A stretch of DNA of 34,806 nucleotides from a virus: IMG/VR virus record IMGVR_UViG_3300044846_002736, positions 1 to 34,806 of that record; one strand, 5' to 3'. The position numbers and the translations under genes were made by a program. Of the stretch, positions 1-12,340 are shown one piece after another (position 1 is the stretch's first letter; every line of letters starts with the position of its first letter). The notes under the pieces were generated by a model, which did not search any database, had not been told where the DNA came from, and saw only the letters and a list, made by a program, of their open reading frames with translations.

Positions 1-4
1 AATA

Positions 5-141
5 TTGATAGTGGTTTTCCCCACTCAACGGATGTCGACAATCCAGAGTGGAATCGGAATTCAGCACCCCCTGCCGATGCATCGTAAAACTACAATTAAG
101 CAGTTAAGATTGGGACGAGATGGGTAACCCAACACTATCAA
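5..141 (+). ncRNA. Structured RNA candidate closed by a 9-bp helix
   Basis: Positions 5-13 (TTGATAGTG) and 133-141 (CACTATCAA) are perfectly complementary and would close the whole segment. Inside, TGGG/CCCA at 121-131 forms a small hairpin, and TCGG 54-57 can pair with CCGA 74-77. There is no convincing open reading frame. The stretch around 87-114 (CTACAATTAAGCAGTTAAG then ATTGGG) closely resembles 672-698 inside the third tRNA-like element (CTATACTTAAGCAGTTGAAG then CTGGG), so the two RNAs probably share ancestry. No tRNA T arm is present here. I cannot assign a family, and the strand is inferred from its neighbours. Confidence 0.45.
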
Positions 142-149
142 AAATATTT

Positions 150-225
150 AGTCAGGTGGTGTAATTGGTTATCACTAAAAATCTTTGTGAAAAGTATGAT
201 ACAGGTTCGATTCCTGTCCTGACTA
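150..225 (+). tRNA. tRNA-like element without a normal anticodon arm
   Basis: The acceptor stem is perfect: AGTCAGG (150-156) pairs with CCTGACT (218-224), with discriminator A225. The T arm is textbook: ACAGG, loop TTCGATT, CCTGT (201-217). A short D arm GTG/CAC lies at 159-175 and its loop contains GG. The middle part (176-200) does not fold into a 5-bp stem with a 7-nt loop. Instead CTTT-GTGA-AAAG can form a hairpin with a GNRA loop. CCA is not encoded. It may be a degenerate tRNA or a tRNA mimic used for RNase P processing. I do not assign an amino acid. Confidence 0.55.
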
Positions 226-251
226 CTAAAAATTAATAAAAATTAAAAACT

Positions 252-452
252 ATGGAAAAAGCAATTAGAATTACTGGTTTATTATCGTTATTGTTTACGC
301 TATTAACAGTTATTATTTGGGGTGTTGTCGCGATGTGGAATCCACCAATTAATGGTATCGTACACAATTTATTTAGAGTGTCTGTATTATGTTTGCTTGT
401 GATTGGGAGTGTATGGGTTTTTATACTTTCATATCAAGAAACGAAAAATTAA
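252..452 (+). CDS. Small two-helix membrane protein, unknown function
   Basis: This 66-residue protein contains two hydrophobic segments, roughly residues 6-28 and 38-60, joined by a short polar turn with the sequence NPPING. It is therefore predicted to be an inner-membrane protein with two transmembrane helices. I do not recognise a family. It lies between two tRNA-like elements and is followed after 5 nt by another small membrane gene, so both are probably on one transcript with the RNAs. Small membrane proteins in such positions in phages are often lysis or superinfection factors, but nothing in this sequence proves that. The start is preceded by an A-rich stretch and no Shine-Dalgarno motif, as expected for this host group. 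Confidence 0.55.
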   Translation: MEKAIRITGLLSLLFTLLTVIIWGVVAMWNPPINGIVHNLFRVSVLCLLVIGSVWVFILSYQETKN

Positions 453-457
453 AAACT

Positions 458-649
458 ATGGAATTAATATTGTTTGGAATTATTGGATGTTTTATTGGTA
501 GTTTAATTGTATTAATCGCAATAAACTTATTTAAATCAAAACCCTCAATTGACTGTCAGGAGTTAATTAAACAATCTGAAGAACGATTAGAGAAGTCAAA
601 GAAGTATGGGGAAGAGTTAGATAGAATGTTAGAAGAAATGAAAAAATAG
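458..649 (+). CDS. Small membrane-anchored coiled-coil protein
   Basis: The 63-residue product begins with a strong N-terminal transmembrane helix (about residues 2-24) and ends in a charged, Glu/Lys-rich helix (about 33-63) likely to be a coiled coil. The topology resembles an inner-membrane spanin or an Rz-like protein, but it is short for that role and I do not assign it. I chose the ATG at 458 rather than an upstream ATG at 389. The upstream start would overlap the previous gene by 64 nt, and 458 has the same AAAAACT context as the previous gene's start. The TAG stop overlaps the first two bases of the next tRNA-like element. Confidence 0.5.
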   Translation: MELILFGIIGCFIGSLIVLIAINLFKSKPSIDCQELIKQSEERLEKSKKYGEELDRMLEEMKK

Positions 650-733
650 TCAGGTGGCGGAATGGTAGACGCTATACTTAAGCAGTTGAAGCTGGGCAAT
701 TCAACAATACAGGTTCGAGTCCTGTCCTGACTA
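648..733 (+). tRNA. tRNA-like element, possibly Leu(AAG) type, imperfect anticodon stem
   Basis: The acceptor AGTCAGG (648-654) pairs perfectly with CCTGACT (726-732), with discriminator A733. The D arm GCGGAATGGTAGACGC (657-672) is almost the standard bacterial leucine tRNA sequence, and the T arm ACAGG-TTCGAGT-CCTGT (709-725) is perfect. At 86 nt it has the length of a class II tRNA. A loop TTAAGCA (678-684) would give anticodon AAG, but its flanking stem has only three of five pairs. A competing 6-bp hairpin GTTGAA/TTCAAC (685-690/700-705) is stronger. CCA is not encoded. Its acceptor and T arm are nearly identical to the element at 150-225, which suggests duplication. Confidence 0.5.
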
Positions 734-735
734 CA

Positions 736-890
736 AAAAATGCTATTGTGGGAGTGACTTACTTCAACCCTCTGACGGCTGGAAAGACAGCACGAAACAC
801 GTAAACCTAAGTACCTGTACAGCGGTGAGTAACGGGCTAAGTTAGATACAATTCCTCGGAGCTGGGAGTAGAATGCTTAGGAGCGTGTTT
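736..890 (+). ncRNA. Structured RNA candidate between two tRNA-like elements
   Basis: There is no open reading frame here, but there is clear nested pairing. AAACACG (795-801) pairs with CGTGTTT (884-890), and just inside it CCTAAG (806-811) pairs with CTTAGG (876-881). A smaller hairpin GCTG/CAGC (778-791) lies upstream. The two nested helices (13 bp) enclose a 64-nt domain. The right edge of the outer helix is only four bases before the next tRNA-like acceptor, so the RNA may be freed by tRNA-type processing. I recognise no known family. Confidence 0.4.
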
Positions 891-894
891 ATAT

Positions 895-1010
895 AGTGCG
901 GTAGCTTAATTGGTAAAGCGTTCGGTGAGCAATAAAAGGTAGGGAGTCATGACCCAAGAATATAAAGTAAGTCTTGCCGAAAGTTGTGAGTTCGAATCTC
1001 ATCCAAACTA
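895..1010 (+). tRNA. tRNA-like element with a 51-nt structured anticodon loop
   Basis: The D arm GCTT-AATTGGTA-AAGC (904-919), a 5-bp anticodon stem TTCGG/CCGAA (921-925/977-981) and a T arm GTGAG-TTCGAAT-CTCAT (986-1002) are all recognisable. The acceptor AGTGCGG (895-901) against CCAAACT (1003-1009) has two mismatches. The anticodon loop is 51 nt instead of 7 and has its own helices: CAAGA/TCTTG (955-959/972-976) and GGG/CCC around 942-955. It is far too short for a group I intron. It could be an unusual small insertion, or a tRNA-shaped RNA whose anticodon arm has another job. Confidence 0.5.
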
Positions 1011-1025
1011 CAAAAAATTAAAATT

Positions 1026-1097
1026 ATGTCACCAGTATTGTTATTATTATTTATTTTTCTTATGTTTATCTTACGTAAGAAAAGACGTTAAGTTAGG
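1026..1097 (+). CDS. Tiny single-helix membrane peptide
   Basis: This is a possible 23-residue peptide: a short N-terminal MSPV, a strongly hydrophobic stretch of about 12 residues (LLLLFIFLMFIL) and a basic tail RKKKTLS. That is the pattern of a minimal one-helix membrane peptide with the positive tail inside. The ATG follows an A-rich stretch. The stop codon TAG lies inside the acceptor stem of the next tRNA-like element, just as the gene ending at 649 overlaps its own downstream tRNA-like element. The very short length makes the call uncertain, and no family is recognised. Confidence 0.35.
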
Positions 1098-1173
1098 AGT
1101 ATAAAAGGCATCGGTGCTAATTCCATCTGTTAAAGATGGTTACTCATTGTGGGTTCGAATCCCACCCTAACTT
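1092..1173 (+). tRNA. tRNA-like element with apparent UUA anticodon
   Basis: The acceptor AGTTAGG (1092-1098) pairs perfectly with CCTAACT (1166-1172). The T arm GTGGG-TTCGAAT-CCCAC (1149-1165) is perfect. A strong stem CCATC/GATGG with loop TGTTAAA forms the anticodon arm. Read conventionally, that loop gives anticodon UUA (complementary to the stop codon UAA), but the base before it is G rather than the nearly universal U. The D arm is poor and the discriminator is T. CCA is not encoded. Function as a decoding tRNA is doubtful. Confidence 0.5.
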
Positions 1174-4265: not shown

Positions 4266-4748
4266 ATGAATATATTTTTTTTAGATTACGACACTCAAAA
4301 ATGTGCGGAGTATCATTGTGACAAACACGTTGTTAAGATGATTTTAGAAACCGCACAACTACTTTGTGGTACACATTGGGTGATCGGCTCAGAGGCACCA
4401 TATAAATTATCACATAAAAATCATCCTTGTGCGATTTGGACTAGGGAGTCGTTGTCAAATTATCTTTACTTATGTGATCTGGGTTTAGAATTATGTAAGG
4501 AATACACATACCGTTATGGTAAAAGACATAAATCTCAAGAAATTATTGAGTGGTGTTTAGACAGTAAACCAAGTATTAAAGATATTGGGTTTACAGAACC
4601 ACCAAAAGCAATGCCAGATGAATATAAGGTCAATTCAGTGACCGAATCTTATAGGAATTATTATATAGGTGCAAAAAAAGATTTTGCAAACTGGAAAAGT
4701 AGATCAATACCGAATTGGTTTACTTATCAAGGAACTACTGTAATGTAG
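4266..4748 (+). CDS. Conserved phage protein, function unassigned
   Basis: This 160-residue protein has a layout I have seen in many tailed phages: an N-terminal MNIFFLDYD, then [21 protein letters not shown] (about residues 13-33), a central tyrosine-rich part, and a C-terminal [24 protein letters not shown] (about 129-152). The conserved His residues and the aromatic C-terminus recall small DNA-repair glycosylases of the DenV type, but this likeness is weak and I do not name an enzyme. It has its own host-type promoter, unlike the structural genes around it, suggesting early expression. Its last 22 bases overlap the convergent gene ending at 4727. Confidence 0.55.
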
Positions 4749-6397
4749 TTTTTAAATTGATAAAATAAATACCCATTTGTATTTTGACCCATTTGTCCAT
4801 TATCAGAAAGGATTGAAATATCGTAAGTTCCTGGTGTATTATACTGAACGGTAACTGGTCTGTAATTTTGTAATTGATTTAATGGTATTGGTAAAATACC
4901 ACCTCCACAAGATGTTGGTTTTGTATAGGTGTAAGTTGACGAAGCGACAGCATTTAAAAGGTTCAAACCAATTTCTACCCAATCACCAGTTGAAAAACTA
5001 TAGAAATTTAATAAACTAAAATTAGGTACAGAAGAATTAAATGAATTAGTTGGTACTTGTAATGGATTACTAACGTATTGTGCACCCTCAAAATAAAGTT
5101 TATTTAGTGAAAAAACACCGTTTGTTACCGGAAATCCTTGTGACCAATTTGGTAAAACTGTTATTTTACTACCAACCGTTATTGTTTGTGGTTGTATTGG
5201 CGAACCACTTAAACATGTAAGCTCTGAATTAGTTTTTAATTCTAATAAAGAATTTGGACCAATTTTTCTTGGTTGATTATCAGGGCAAGCAACATTTGCA
5301 GACCAAACGGATTTATTATAAGTAACACCATCAAAACCGGTAAATGGAGATGGTGTTCTTACTGTTACATACGCAAAAGTAGGTGTTGCAGCACTTTTAT
5401 AAAAAGTCCATATTTTATATTGACGAAAATTGTCAAAACTAGGTGATCCACCAAAATTCGGAATACCCAAACATTGGGGATTGTTTTCAACATAAATATC
5501 AAATGGGCTTTGACACGGACTAGCTAATATTGTTTGATTATTCCAAATTAAAGTCATTGTATCTGGACTTAATTGGTAATTAAACCCTACTTGTACATTT
5601 CCAATAGCAGTACCCAAGTTTATTTGATAGGTTCTTGTGGTTGGCGCGTTAACATTTGAGCTTGCTGTTAAACCAAAATTAGTACCACACCCTATGATTT
5701 GGATATTGGGTGAAGGTGATGGTGTTGGTGTTGGATTTAACGTTGGTGTTGGGGTTAACGGTATTTTTGATACTGGTATAAACTGTATTGTTTGTGTTGG
5801 GGTTGGGGTAGGTGTTTTTGTAGGTGTAGGAGTCGGAGTCGGAGTCCTTGTTGTAGTTGGGGTTGGTGTTGGTGTTGGTGTAAAACCAATTGTGGGTGTT
5901 ACAGTAGGTGTAGGTGTTGGGGATGGTGGAGGACAAAAACAATCACCACTACCATAAGTAATTACTGAAAAAGTTATTGGCGGGTTAGCCGCATCTACAT
6001 AAGTCTCAATACTATTATTTCTAATACAACCAGACAATGTATACGTTTGACCACCCTCAACAAATTGTGTAAAAATATTACCACAACAATCTTTCCACTG
6101 CATAAATCCCTTATCTTTAGGTATAACTGTTGCACCAACTCTACAATCATACATACAGTCTAAATAACTAGATATTTGTTCGTCAGAAAAAGTACCATAT
6201 TGTGATAAACAATTTCTAATTAAATTATAATCCGTTGAGTTATTCAAAATTGTCGCACAACCTATCAATAAGGTTGGATTGTCTATCCCAAGGGTTGTAC
6301 TTAAACAATTTATCACATTAGTTGGTATTCCAACAGGCCCTACGGTTAATGTTGACGTGTAAGCCGAAAGAATTGATTGTATATTAATAACTGGCAT
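4727..6397 (-). CDS. Cysteine-rich structural protein with Pro-Thr linker, copy A
   Basis: A 556-residue protein with a clear three-part layout. Residues 1-155 are a Cys-rich N-terminal domain (motifs [31 protein letters not shown]). Residues about 156-231 are a low-complexity stalk made almost only of Pro and Thr ([10 protein letters not shown]). Residues 232-556 form a beta-type C-terminal domain. It is a full-length paralogue of the gene at 6418-8109: N-terminal domains and stalks are similar, C-terminal domains are more diverged. The layout suggests a virion-surface or receptor-binding protein with a flexible stalk; the family is unknown to me. Only 20 bases separate it from copy B, so they are probably co-transcribed. 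Confidence 0.65.
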
Positions 6398-6417
6398 ATT
6401 TTTATTTTTATTTTTTA

Positions 6418-8109
6418 TTAAACTACGGTTATATAATTCTTAAATCTGTACCAATAACAAGGTAATGAACCACTTTGTGTGTGAGTTTTTACCGTAATAT
6501 CATATGTTCCTGGTGTGTTATAAACAACACTAAAAGGTTTTAAAGTGTGTAGTACTTGTGGGATAATACTAAACGTTTGTCCAGAACTTGGTCCACATTC
6601 AACAAGATAAGGCCAAGGACCTTGTGATGAGTTAGTATTAAATTTGAATTGAGTACCAAAAAAAGTTAAATCTGGTAAGGCTGTGGAATAATAATAACTA
6701 ACTTGTGGATATTGGGTATTTTGCCAGTTTGGTGAAAACGGTATTGTAGAAACAGACGCAGGATTTGGTGCAGGAAACCCACCTTCAGTCCAAACTGTAT
6801 GAATTATACCACCAACACTATTACCCCCAGTAGGTGGGATTTCCCAAGATGGTAAAATTGTTAATACTGTGTTGGCAGGTATTGTAATTGGCGTTAATGT
6901 ATTACCAGTTAAACAATTATATTGATCTGGGGTTTGAAGTCTTTTTAAAGATGTTGAGCTAATAGGTGCATTAGGTCTGCCGTCTGGACAAGTAAGTGAC
7001 GCACTATATATTGATTCGATACAAGTATCACCTGCGTGTTGAGAGGGTGTTCTCATTACAAGGTATGCAAATGTCGGTGAAGCAGTTGGTTTATGAAACG
7101 AGGCCTTTAGACCACAATTTCCAGTTTCTAAATCACCGCTCAAATAAGGAGCGTTCCAAGGAGCTAATTGTTCACCGGTATTACATTGTGGGTCAGCGTA
7201 ACAAAAAGCGTAATAATTCCCATTACAACCAGTTTCAATTACAGTTTGCCCATCATATATCACAGTCGCTCTATCACTACAGGAAATAACGTCTAATGTC
7301 AATGATACATTACCAATTTGTGTTCCTAAATTCACTTTATATAAAAAAGTTTGTGGTCCAATAATCGTCTGCTCAAGTGTTGGCCCAACTGATGTATTAC
7401 AACCAATTGTAGGTATGTTTGGTGATGGCGTTGGTGTTGGTGGTGGATTAAACGTTGATGTGGGTGTTGGTGATATTTTTGGTACTGGTATAAACTGTAT
7501 TGTCTGTGTCGGTGTTGGTGTAATTGTCTGTGTCGGTGTAATTGTTGGTGTTGGGGTTCTTGTAGGTGTTGGTGTTGTTGTAGGTGTTGGTGTAAAATTA
7601 ATAGTAGGTGTCACAGTTGGCGTTGGTGTAGGTGATGGCGGAGGACAATCACAATTAACACCACCATATGTAATTGATGAAAAACTTATTGGTGGGTTAT
7701 TGTTATCAACATAAGACTGTATTGTGTTTGTTTTAATACAACCAGATAGTACGTAAGTTGTATTAGGAAATACAAATTGTGTTTGTAGATTATTACAACA
7801 ATCTTTCCACTGTATGTACCCTTTACCTAAAGGTATGACCGTTGCACCAACTCTACAATTACTTATACAGTCAATTAAAGCTTGAATTTGCGCGTCAGAA
7901 AAAGTACCATATTGTGATAAACAATTTCTTATATAGTTATAATCAGTTGATGCTGCCATTCCCCAAATACAACCTAAAGGTAGTGTAACGTTTTGGATAC
8001 CTAAAACCGAAGTTATACAGTTTTTAACTTGTTGTGTTGGCATGAACGCTTGGGCGTATTTTGATTGGGAGTATCCGGAAAGAATTGATTTCACATTAAT
8101 AACTGGCAT
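6418..8109 (-). CDS. Cysteine-rich structural protein with Pro-Thr linker, copy B
   Basis: The 563-residue paralogue of copy A starts [12 protein letters not shown] against [12 protein letters not shown] in copy A. That is why I place the start at 8109 rather than at an in-frame ATG 27 bases upstream. The N-terminal domain keeps the QWKDCC and CRVGATVIP motifs. The Pro-Thr stalk (about residues 160-235) carries the same TQTIQFIPV motif near its end. The C-terminal part is beta-rich, with the phrase [10 protein letters not shown] shared in modified form with copy A and a YNTPGTYDI motif near the end, also shared. A late-type motif lies upstream on this strand. Probably an exposed virion protein; function unproven. 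Confidence 0.65.
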
Positions 8110-8134
8110 TGTATAATAATTTTTAAGTTTATAC

Positions 8135-8144
8135 AAATAAATAT
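8135..8144 (-). promoter_or_regulatory. Late-type motif for the minus-strand Pro-Thr genes
   Basis: Read on the minus strand this is ATATTTATTT, 25 nt before the ATG at 8109. It is divergent from the plus-strand copy at 8166, giving a compact two-way promoter region. Confidence 0.45.
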
Positions 8145-10664: not shown

Positions 10665-11499
10665 TTGAATTATCCATTCAGGAGTAAGTAATGAAACTGA
10701 TAAAGATATTGGGCCGTGTATAGTCCATAAAATAAACTGGGAAACTAGGATAAAGTGAGTAAGTTGTGTTAACTTATTTGCGTCTTGATAAATCTTCGGA
10801 TTTATTGAGGTCAAGTACACAAGCGGGATACCGTTTAATCTTTAGTACCGAGGGCAACGCTGTAGGGAAAGTGGTTAAATGAATAGGCGATGTGGGTCGT
10901 CTAGTTGAGGTGGGAACACCAATAGGAATAACCCGTAGGAATTATGCAAAAAATAGAGTTTCCAATTTTATTATTGCGTGTTCCATTATGATAGGATACT
11001 TAAAACCGAAAGGTATGTTAACGTACAAGTGGTGTTGTTATTAACCTTGACCGTCCCCTACCAAGGGTTCGATCACGAAGTAGTCTAGAAATATGGAAAT
11101 GGGGACATTTCACGAGGCAGTTTGGTATTTTGTTATTCAAAAGATAATGAAGCTTAAGACGGACCACTGCTTTGACCAATCCACGACACAAAAACTTTTA
11201 TGTTAATAAACTAACATTTATAAACTATAAAGCAAAAGTGTCCGTCACGATATAATGGAAGTTACCCACCTATTCACTGGCAGTCAGTGGAACGTGATAA
11301 CCGCAAGTTTGACCGTATTTTTATGAAAAATCTCTAGGTCGTCGAAGACTGAATCAGGACGCAATCTTGAGGAGACAGGAGTAGTAAGAGAGTAGTTATG
11401 TCGTCAAGAAGTGATTGGTCTAACCAATCGGTAATGAGTGTTACAGGACAAAATCCTGTGGATAAGAGTAGAATCAATAATGACTCGAAAGACACTTAC

Positions 11500-11525
11500 A
11501 AAAACTGTAATCTCAGGTTTTTATT
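11500..11525 (+). terminator. Possible terminator of the large RNA
   Basis: AAAACTG followed by CAGGTTTTT can form an imperfect hairpin (one bulged G) ending in T residues. It is weak; the transcript might continue into the lipoprotein gene. Confidence 0.35.
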
Positions 11526-11932: not shown

Positions 11933-12340
11933 TGGTGGATCCGGAGAGTTTCGAACTCTCGTCCGGCTCGTCTTGTCTAAAAGACAACTACATGCTTAGG
12001 TTGGTATTTTCTAATACCCCAAAATATTTGGTTTTAATTTGACCAAAAACAAAGTTGACCTGTTCTTCACCATCGTAAATCAACAACCAATGGACGACTC
12101 GATTTCGGGTTCAGTCGTATTCCACCTTAGTCACTTCTGTTCCTGAGCGTATGTGAACCGGCTCGCGTTTCCGTAAACTTATTAAGCTACAGTAACTTCA
12201 GAACCTCTTAGTAAACCAAGAGTTTCCATTTTGTTTAGCAAATTGCCAGTTGTTTTTCTAAATCAGTTTTTAACGAGATTAATTCAGTCTCGGCATGCTT
12301 CTAATATTCAACCAACGCCCGTCAATTCCAATACGGACCC
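11933..12340 (-). ncRNA. ssrA: tmRNA (ssrA), phage-encoded
   Basis: On the minus strand, the 5' end GGGTCCGTATTGGAATTGACGG (12340 downward) has the tmRNA signature. Its first seven bases pair with CGGATCC (11943-11937; one G-U), followed by an encoded ACCA ending at 11933. The T arm GAGAG-TTCGAAA-CTCTC is intact. At 408 nt it is a normal one-piece tmRNA. It rescues stalled ribosomes and adds a degradation tag. The tag reading frame ends with GCT TAA TAA (12187-12179), the standard layout. Reading back to a Gly resume codon (12205-12203, as I recall for Bacteroidota) gives GSEVTVA. It lacks the common C-terminal ALAA. The resume codon is inferred, but the end ...EVTVA is fixed by the frame. 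Confidence 0.85.

What the first reader, a model, noticed from the sequence alone, without database searches (positions are those of the whole stretch)
150..1173. Cluster of four tRNA-like RNAs with sound T arms but abnormal anticodon arms
All four have a T arm that pairs throughout and three have a perfect 7-bp acceptor, always starting with A. Yet one has no anticodon stem, one has a mismatched stem, one has a 51-nt loop and one lacks U33. None encodes CCA. The half that is kept is what RNase P, CCA-adding enzyme and EF-Tu recognise. Inference: they may work as processing signals or tRNA mimics rather than as decoders.
Basis: partly seen in the sequence, partly recalled or inferred. Interest (0 to 1): 0.8.

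Follow-up and report, generated by a model that had tools for sequence, protein, structure and literature searches.

The report
Phage leucine-tRNA frames carrying swappable RNAs
Many uncultured bacterial viruses carry small RNAs built on one fixed, leucine-tRNA-like frame whose decoding arm has been replaced by one of hundreds of different folded inserts; this looks like an undescribed class of non-decoding viral RNA, though no experiment has yet shown what the inserts do.

Summary
All four RNAs have intact T arms, three have perfect acceptors starting with A, none encodes CCA, and none has a normal anticodon arm. They are not dying tRNAs. The first two share a frame (AGTCAGG-TGGCGGAATTGGTAGACGC…ACAGGTTCGAATCCTGTCCTGACT-A) that I found 351 times (unique sequences) on 247 IMG/VR virus contigs. 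Between D and T arms it holds inserts of 14–162 nt in about 255 families (Chao1 ~790). Canonical anticodon arms occur at chance level. Insert families recur in unrelated flanks, show compensatory base changes and fold better than shuffles; the insert at 648–733 is the most conserved part of its element. Copies within one contig carry different inserts (277 of 280 pairs). The closest relative (L005) has a different insert at the same site. The frame's D arm equals E. coli tRNA-Leu(CAG) and keeps the published leucine identity nucleotides. Best reading: RNAs on a tRNA-Leu chassis, processed and probably leucylated and stabilised as tRNAs, with the insert as effector, perhaps a decoy against host defence (inferred). 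T4 species 1 RNA and T5 RNAX are possible unexplained kin. The RNAs at 895–1010 and 1091–1173 are different scaffolds of the same general kind.

The parts
150..225 (+). tRNA-Leu-frame RNA 1 (acceptor 150-156/218-224, D stem 159-161/173-175, insert 176-200, T arm 201-217, A73 at 225)
   Evidence: Rfam tRNA 43.6 bits; fold z -2.2; frame in 351 unique elements
648..733 (+). tRNA-Leu-frame RNA 2; insert 673-708 = linker TATACTTAAGCA (673-684), 6-bp hairpin 685-690/700-705 with loop GCTGGGCAA (691-699)
   Evidence: 39.8 bits; 19 distinct relatives with compensatory changes; 24 loci in 19 unrelated upstream flanks
895..1010 (+). tRNA-like RNA 3; stem 921-925/977-981 closing a 51-nt loop with motif GGTAGGGAGTCATGACCC (938-955)
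   Evidence: 45.6 bits; relative L005 8749-8864 keeps stem by compensatory change and motif with GC for AT; 22-nt identity to phage T5 RNAX
1091..1173 (+). tRNA-like RNA 4, a second scaffold; hairpin 1123-1128/1134-1139 with GTTAA pentaloop, no U33 anticodon loop
   Evidence: 22.4 bits to RF00005; fold z -3.0; relatives
795..890 (+). Separate structured RNA ('X') between RNAs 2 and 3; outer helix 798-802/883-887
   Evidence: Core pattern in 96 virus contigs; 62 distinct sequences, 10 pairs with two-sided changes, 96.4% of cells paired against 83.5% shuffled; no Rfam match
1..145 (+). Possible further structured RNA upstream of RNA 1 (TTGATAGTG 5-13 pairs with CACTATCAA 132-140)
   Evidence: Single-sequence fold only, z -1.5 for 1-240

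Best explanation
These are phage non-coding RNAs built on a tRNA chassis. The acceptor, D and T arms of a tRNA-Leu-like frame are kept so that the transcript is cut out and finished by the host tRNA pathway (RNase P, 3' processing, CCA addition), is probably charged by LeuRS and bound by EF-Tu, and so is abundant and stable. The anticodon and variable arms, which bacterial LeuRS does not need, are replaced by a structured insert that is the working part. Phages swap inserts on the same frame and hold several different ones. SHOWN here: frame conservation, absence of anticodon arms beyond chance, recurrent insert families with compensatory changes, a swap at one locus, different inserts in one contig, leucine identity nucleotides. 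INFERRED: processing, leucylation, stability. GUESS: inserts bind host proteins or RNAs, most plausibly as decoys or inhibitors in the defence/counter-defence race.
For: 351 unique AGTCAGG-frame elements on 247 contigs; strict canonical anticodon arm in 9 of 351 against 82 of 144 tRNA hits with other acceptors in the same loci. Anticodon stem at chance level, 12 of 197 vs 9.4 expected. 255 insert clusters; within a contig 277 of 280 pairs have different inserts; 280 of 280 pairs on the same strand. Inserts fold better than dinucleotide shuffles, mean z -0.74, n=168. Compensatory changes inside inserts of several families. RNA-2 insert near-invariant while T stem and acceptor vary with compensation; 24 loci, 19 unrelated upstream flanks. 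L005 has the same upstream gene (92.6% over window 445-675) and frame as window RNA 2, but a 77-nt insert of another family. Leucine identity: D arm GGTGGCGGAATTGGTAGACGC identical to E. coli leuV; with the 3' end as anchor T8 88, A14 85, A15 85, G18G19 81 of 90; with the 5' end as anchor U48 96, A73 102 of 115. PMC9976931: in E. coli A73, A15-U48 and G18G19 matter, and tRNA-Leu without anticodon and variable arms stays active.
Against: No RNA or charging data. A15-U48 and A73 are also common in ordinary tRNAs of these contigs (67 of 129 and 87 of 129), so they support leucine identity only together with the D arm. 200 of 255 insert clusters are singletons, where constraint is known only from average folding. 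Two-sided changes are few per family. Sampling was by frame patterns. RNAs 3 and 4 have other D arms. No target found: no antisense signal in the own locus or E. coli rRNA.
Confidence: 0.62

Rival explanations
1. Processing punctuation: tRNA-like elements are excised by RNase P and RNase Z to separate small mRNAs and ncRNAs in the operon; the insert is filler.
For: Elements lie between small ORFs and other RNAs, always on the same strand within a locus.
Against: Recurrent, covarying, sometimes near-invariant inserts; inserts fold better than shuffles.
Confidence: 0.12
2. Dying tRNAs: pseudogenes of phage tRNA-Leu whose anticodon arm has decayed.
For: Anticodon arms absent; D arm clearly from tRNA-Leu.
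Against: Acceptor and T stem stay near invariant or change with compensation; inserts can be longer than any anticodon arm and recur in unrelated flanks.
Confidence: 0.04
3. True decoders with odd anticodon arms, or tRNAs with introns in the anticodon loop removed by an unknown splicing route.
For: RNA 3 has a perfect 5-bp anticodon stem around a 51-nt loop, kept by compensatory change in L005; a few class members have normal arms (9 of 351).
Against: For the class, no anticodon stem beyond chance; no Rfam family other than tRNA at insert positions in 126 kb; inserts too short for group I introns.
Confidence: 0.09
4. A DNA-level cassette system: tRNA arms act as recombination sites and the inserts are cargo without RNA function.
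For: Same frame with different inserts at one locus suggests recombination in the conserved arms.
Against: D and T loops, paired arms and compensatory changes fit selection on RNA; every same-locus pair is on one strand.
Confidence: 0.05
5. Translation-inert tRNA decoys: the tRNA body titrates defence enzymes that act on the acceptor end or elbow of tRNA, and the insert only blocks decoding.
For: Phage tRNAs can rescue phages from tRNA-targeting defence (PMC11555353, PMC10264068); the frame is conserved in sequence.
Against: Does not explain conserved, covarying insert families or different inserts in one contig.
Confidence: 0.08

Closest known systems
T4 species 1 RNA (rnaC) and species 2 RNA (rnaD)
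   Same: T4-like phage tRNA cluster; stable RNA; rnaC is 139 nt and ends in a full T arm CCGGG-TTCGAAT-CCCGG plus CGTTTCG, after a long stretch without an obvious anticodon arm; rnaC conserved in 718 phage records.
   Different: Different acceptor, no Leu D arm, and conserved as one sequence rather than a family of swappable inserts; function not annotated.
T5 RNAX
   Same: Annotated 'stable RNA with unknown functions' in a tRNA region; shares AAAAGGTAGGGAGTCATGACCC with window RNA 3 and holds a tRNA-like segment.
   Different: 719 nt, much longer; the shared motif is short (E 0.005).
Allo-tRNAs and irregular soil tRNAs (Mukai et al. 2017, reviewed in PMC7609411)
   Same: Aminoacylation identity separate from the anticodon; polycistrons of irregular tRNAs in metatranscriptomes.
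   Different: Defined by 12-bp 8/4 or 9/3 acceptor domains and carry anticodons; here 7/5 and no anticodon arm.
Engineered tRNA scaffold for RNA expression (PMC3753655, listed)
   Same: Foreign RNA mounted on a tRNA body for stable expression: the same design idea (from own knowledge; the paper was listed, not read).
   Different: Artificial; here natural, viral and diversified.
tmRNA
   Same: tRNA-like domain charged without an anticodon (own knowledge).
   Different: tmRNA has a reading frame and pseudoknots; Rfam calls a separate tmRNA in the window and none at these elements.
Phage tRNAs that evade tRNA-targeting defence (PMC10264068, PMC11555353)
   Same: Phage tRNA-region RNAs with a counter-defence role.
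   Different: Those are ordinary tRNAs that act as decoders.

Membership tests
tRNA (RF00005) | Score above the curated cut-off (29 bits) | tested here: met
   43.6, 39.8, 45.6 bits for RNAs 1-3; RNA 4 fails with 22.4
tRNA (RF00005) | Anticodon arm of 5 bp and 7-nt loop with U33 | tested here: not met
   9 of 351 class members; stem at chance level; absent in the four window RNAs
tRNA-Leu identity (E. coli) | A73, A15-U48, U8-A14, G18G19 | tested here: met
   rule from PMC9976931
tRNA-Leu identity (E. coli) | Charged with leucine by LeuRS | not testable with these tools
   Needs in vitro or in vivo charging
tmRNA (RF00023) | Matches the tmRNA model | tested here: not met
   Rfam finds tmRNA only at 11933-12340
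Allo-tRNA | 8/4 or 9/3 acceptor domain of 12 bp | tested here: not met
   7-bp acceptor and 5-bp T stem (7/5) in the elements; definition
SpF41 sRNA (RF02435), for RNA 4 | Score above the gathering cut-off of 52 bits | tested here: not met
   25.8 bits, E 0.42
T5 RNAX | Similarity over the long RNA, not one motif | tested here: not met
   Only about 22-25 nt shared
Group I intron in tRNA-Leu | Intron in a tRNA with an intact anticodon stem | tested here: not met
   No anticodon stem beyond chance; no intron family reached Rfam's gathering score

The most novel reading that the evidence does not exclude
A natural modular RNA-display system: phages share a leucine-tRNA chassis and exchange hundreds of structured effector inserts, each binding a different host target (for example a defence protein), with leucylation and EF-Tu binding keeping the RNA stable.
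Probability: 0.35. Interest if true: 0.95.

Novelty: categorically new. Interest (0 to 1): 0.84.

Why it matters
If right, phage 'tRNA' regions hide a large, undescribed class of non-decoding RNAs that annotation tools miss or call odd tRNAs. It would give a frame for old orphans such as T4 species 1 RNA and T5 RNAX, a natural precedent for the engineered tRNA scaffold, and a source of hundreds of evolved RNA modules, possibly inhibitors of bacterial defence. It also gives a directly testable prediction: RNAs without anticodons that are charged with leucine during infection.

Tried and rejected
Antisense action: inserts have no longer complementary matches in their own locus than shuffled inserts (10.0 vs 9.8 nt), nor to E. 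coli rRNA. Known RNA families in inserts: none but tRNA in 126 kb; one Pistol ribozyme elsewhere in L210. The genome-contig scan with the frame pattern gave 42 hits, most at chance; by eye about ten records carry real frames, in Bacteroidota and other mainly environmental MAGs, so host assignment is weak (the T-arm filter had a wrong spacing and was not used). The pattern GGTAGGGAGTCNNGACCC has about as many viral hits as chance would give, so only hits with tRNA-like or T5 context were used. No isolate phage carries a full AGTCAGG frame; one metagenomic huge phage (LR756501) has a compensated version, AGTTAAG/CTTAACT. A retron or PARIS link was not pursued: published rescue uses ordinary tRNAs. 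The first insert clustering held some elements that ran into a neighbour; one search removed most of them. My reading that the RNA 3 motif loop (TCATGA/TCGCGA, palindromic) makes dimers rests on two sequences and was dropped.

Full report
What was checked. The window is a 34.8-kb IMG/VR virus fragment of a T4-like phage: portal Gp20, terminase, prohead protease and holin by Pfam. It also carries GOLLD RNA and a tmRNA. Three pass Rfam's tRNA cut-off and the fourth scores 22.4 bits. T stems are complete, three acceptors are perfect and none encodes CCA. In isolation RNAs 1 and 4 fold better than shuffles (z -2.2 and -3.0), RNA 2 weakly (-1.25), RNA 3 not (0.0).

A relative shows what varies. L005 (98.7-kb contig, about 84% identical over the shared genes) has the same region with six tRNA-like elements besides a complete tRNA-Arg. 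At the place of window RNA 2 the upstream gene is shared at 92.6% identity (window 445-675), into the D arm; then the insert is unrelated, 77 nt instead of 37, and the T arm matches again. So the frame stays and the insert is replaced.

The frame is a large class. With a second scan from the 3' end and the relaxed finder I held 351 unique elements on 247 contigs, median 103 nt. Only 9 have a strict canonical anticodon arm, against 82 of 144 tRNA hits with other acceptors in the same loci. With one element per insert cluster, a stem at the anticodon position is no commoner than in shuffled halves (12 of 197, 9.4 expected), and 5-bp/7-nt hairpins with U at loop position 2 are at chance (18 vs 15.2). 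As a class these RNAs have no anticodon arm.

The inserts are real RNA modules. They fold better than dinucleotide shuffles (mean z -0.74, n=168). They fall into 255 clusters, 55 of them recurrent (Chao1 about 790). Several families show changes on both sides of pairs inside the insert, for example L113/L253/L273, where a long helix is rewritten around a kept core. Window RNA 2's insert is in 24 held loci with 19 unrelated upstream flanks; in 19 distinct sequences the linker TATACTTAAGCA does not change and the loop GCTGGGYAA varies only at Y, while the hairpin, T stem and acceptor vary with compensation. Note that the scan pattern fixed part of that insert. Within a contig, 277 of 280 pairs of elements carry inserts of different clusters, and all pairs are on the same strand. 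This rules out general decay and makes plain punctuation unlikely.

The frame is tRNA-Leu. Its D arm GGTGGCGGAATTGGTAGACGC equals positions 6-26 of E. coli leuV. Features measured on the side not used for the search: T8 88, A14 85, A15 85, G18G19 81 of 90; U48 96 and A73 102 of 115, followed by C in 110. A review states that in E. coli A73, A15-U48 and G18G19 are needed for leucine identity, the anticodon is not, and tRNA-Leu lacking anticodon and variable arms stays active (PMC9976931). The phage RNAs drop just what LeuRS does not need. Caution: A15-U48 and A73 are also frequent in ordinary tRNAs of these contigs (67 and 87 of 129).

RNAs 3 and 4. RNA 3 has a non-Leu D arm and a 51-nt loop whose closing stem is kept by compensatory change in L005. 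Its loop shares 22 nt with T5 RNAX, annotated as a stable RNA of unknown function; the core AGTCATGACC is kept in the T5-like phages examined, and the surrounding RNAX region matches 393 records. RNA 4 belongs to another scaffold with a hairpin in the D position and a variable third helix; its 'anticodon' hairpin is 6 bp with a GTTRA pentaloop. Whether these share a function with the Leu frame is open.

Mechanism. Most likely the tRNA body is kept for maturation, charging and stability, and the insert does the work. No antisense signal and no known RNA family was found in inserts, which leans towards binding of proteins or folded RNAs. The counter-defence guess rests on the diversity pattern and on published roles of phage tRNA regions; it is not shown.

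Comparison and novelty. The nearest known things are T4 species 1 RNA, which ends in a full T arm after a long stretch without an obvious anticodon arm, T5 RNAX, allo-tRNAs and the engineered tRNA scaffold. None is a family of interchangeable inserts on one leucine frame. My literature search covered only open-access papers, so an earlier description may exist.

Noticed in passing
window 795-890: Structured RNA 'X' with strong covariation, often next to tRNA or tRNA-like genes; core pattern in 96 virus contigs and absent from Rfam.
   Followed up: partly
window 11113-11519 (+) and 11933-12340 (-): GOLLD RNA and a phage tmRNA lie close together in the same fragment; the same pair is in L005.
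   Followed up: no
window 1-145: Intergenic stretch with complementary ends (TTGATAGTG / CACTATCAA), perhaps another ncRNA.
   Followed up: no
L005 7548-7579: What looks like an orphan 5' half of a tRNA (GCACCCGTAGCTCAGCTGGATAGAGCAAC) directly before a complete tRNA-Arg.
   Followed up: no
L225, L231, L240, L253, L342: Some frames carry a second insertion, a GC-rich hairpin in the D loop (e.g. GAGCGTGGTGTCCACGCTC).
   Followed up: no
L394, L400: The RNA 4 hairpin CCATCTGTTAAAGATGG also occurs on an AGTCAGG acceptor, suggesting module exchange between scaffolds.
   Followed up: partly
L044, L045, L049: The T5 RNAX / RNA 3 motif also occurs in hairpin-like stretches without tRNA features; could be partly chance.
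   Followed up: partly
window 4727-8136 (-): Two adjacent proteins with long Pro-Thr repeats (PTPTPTPT) of similar layout, likely duplicated structural or adhesion proteins.
   Followed up: no
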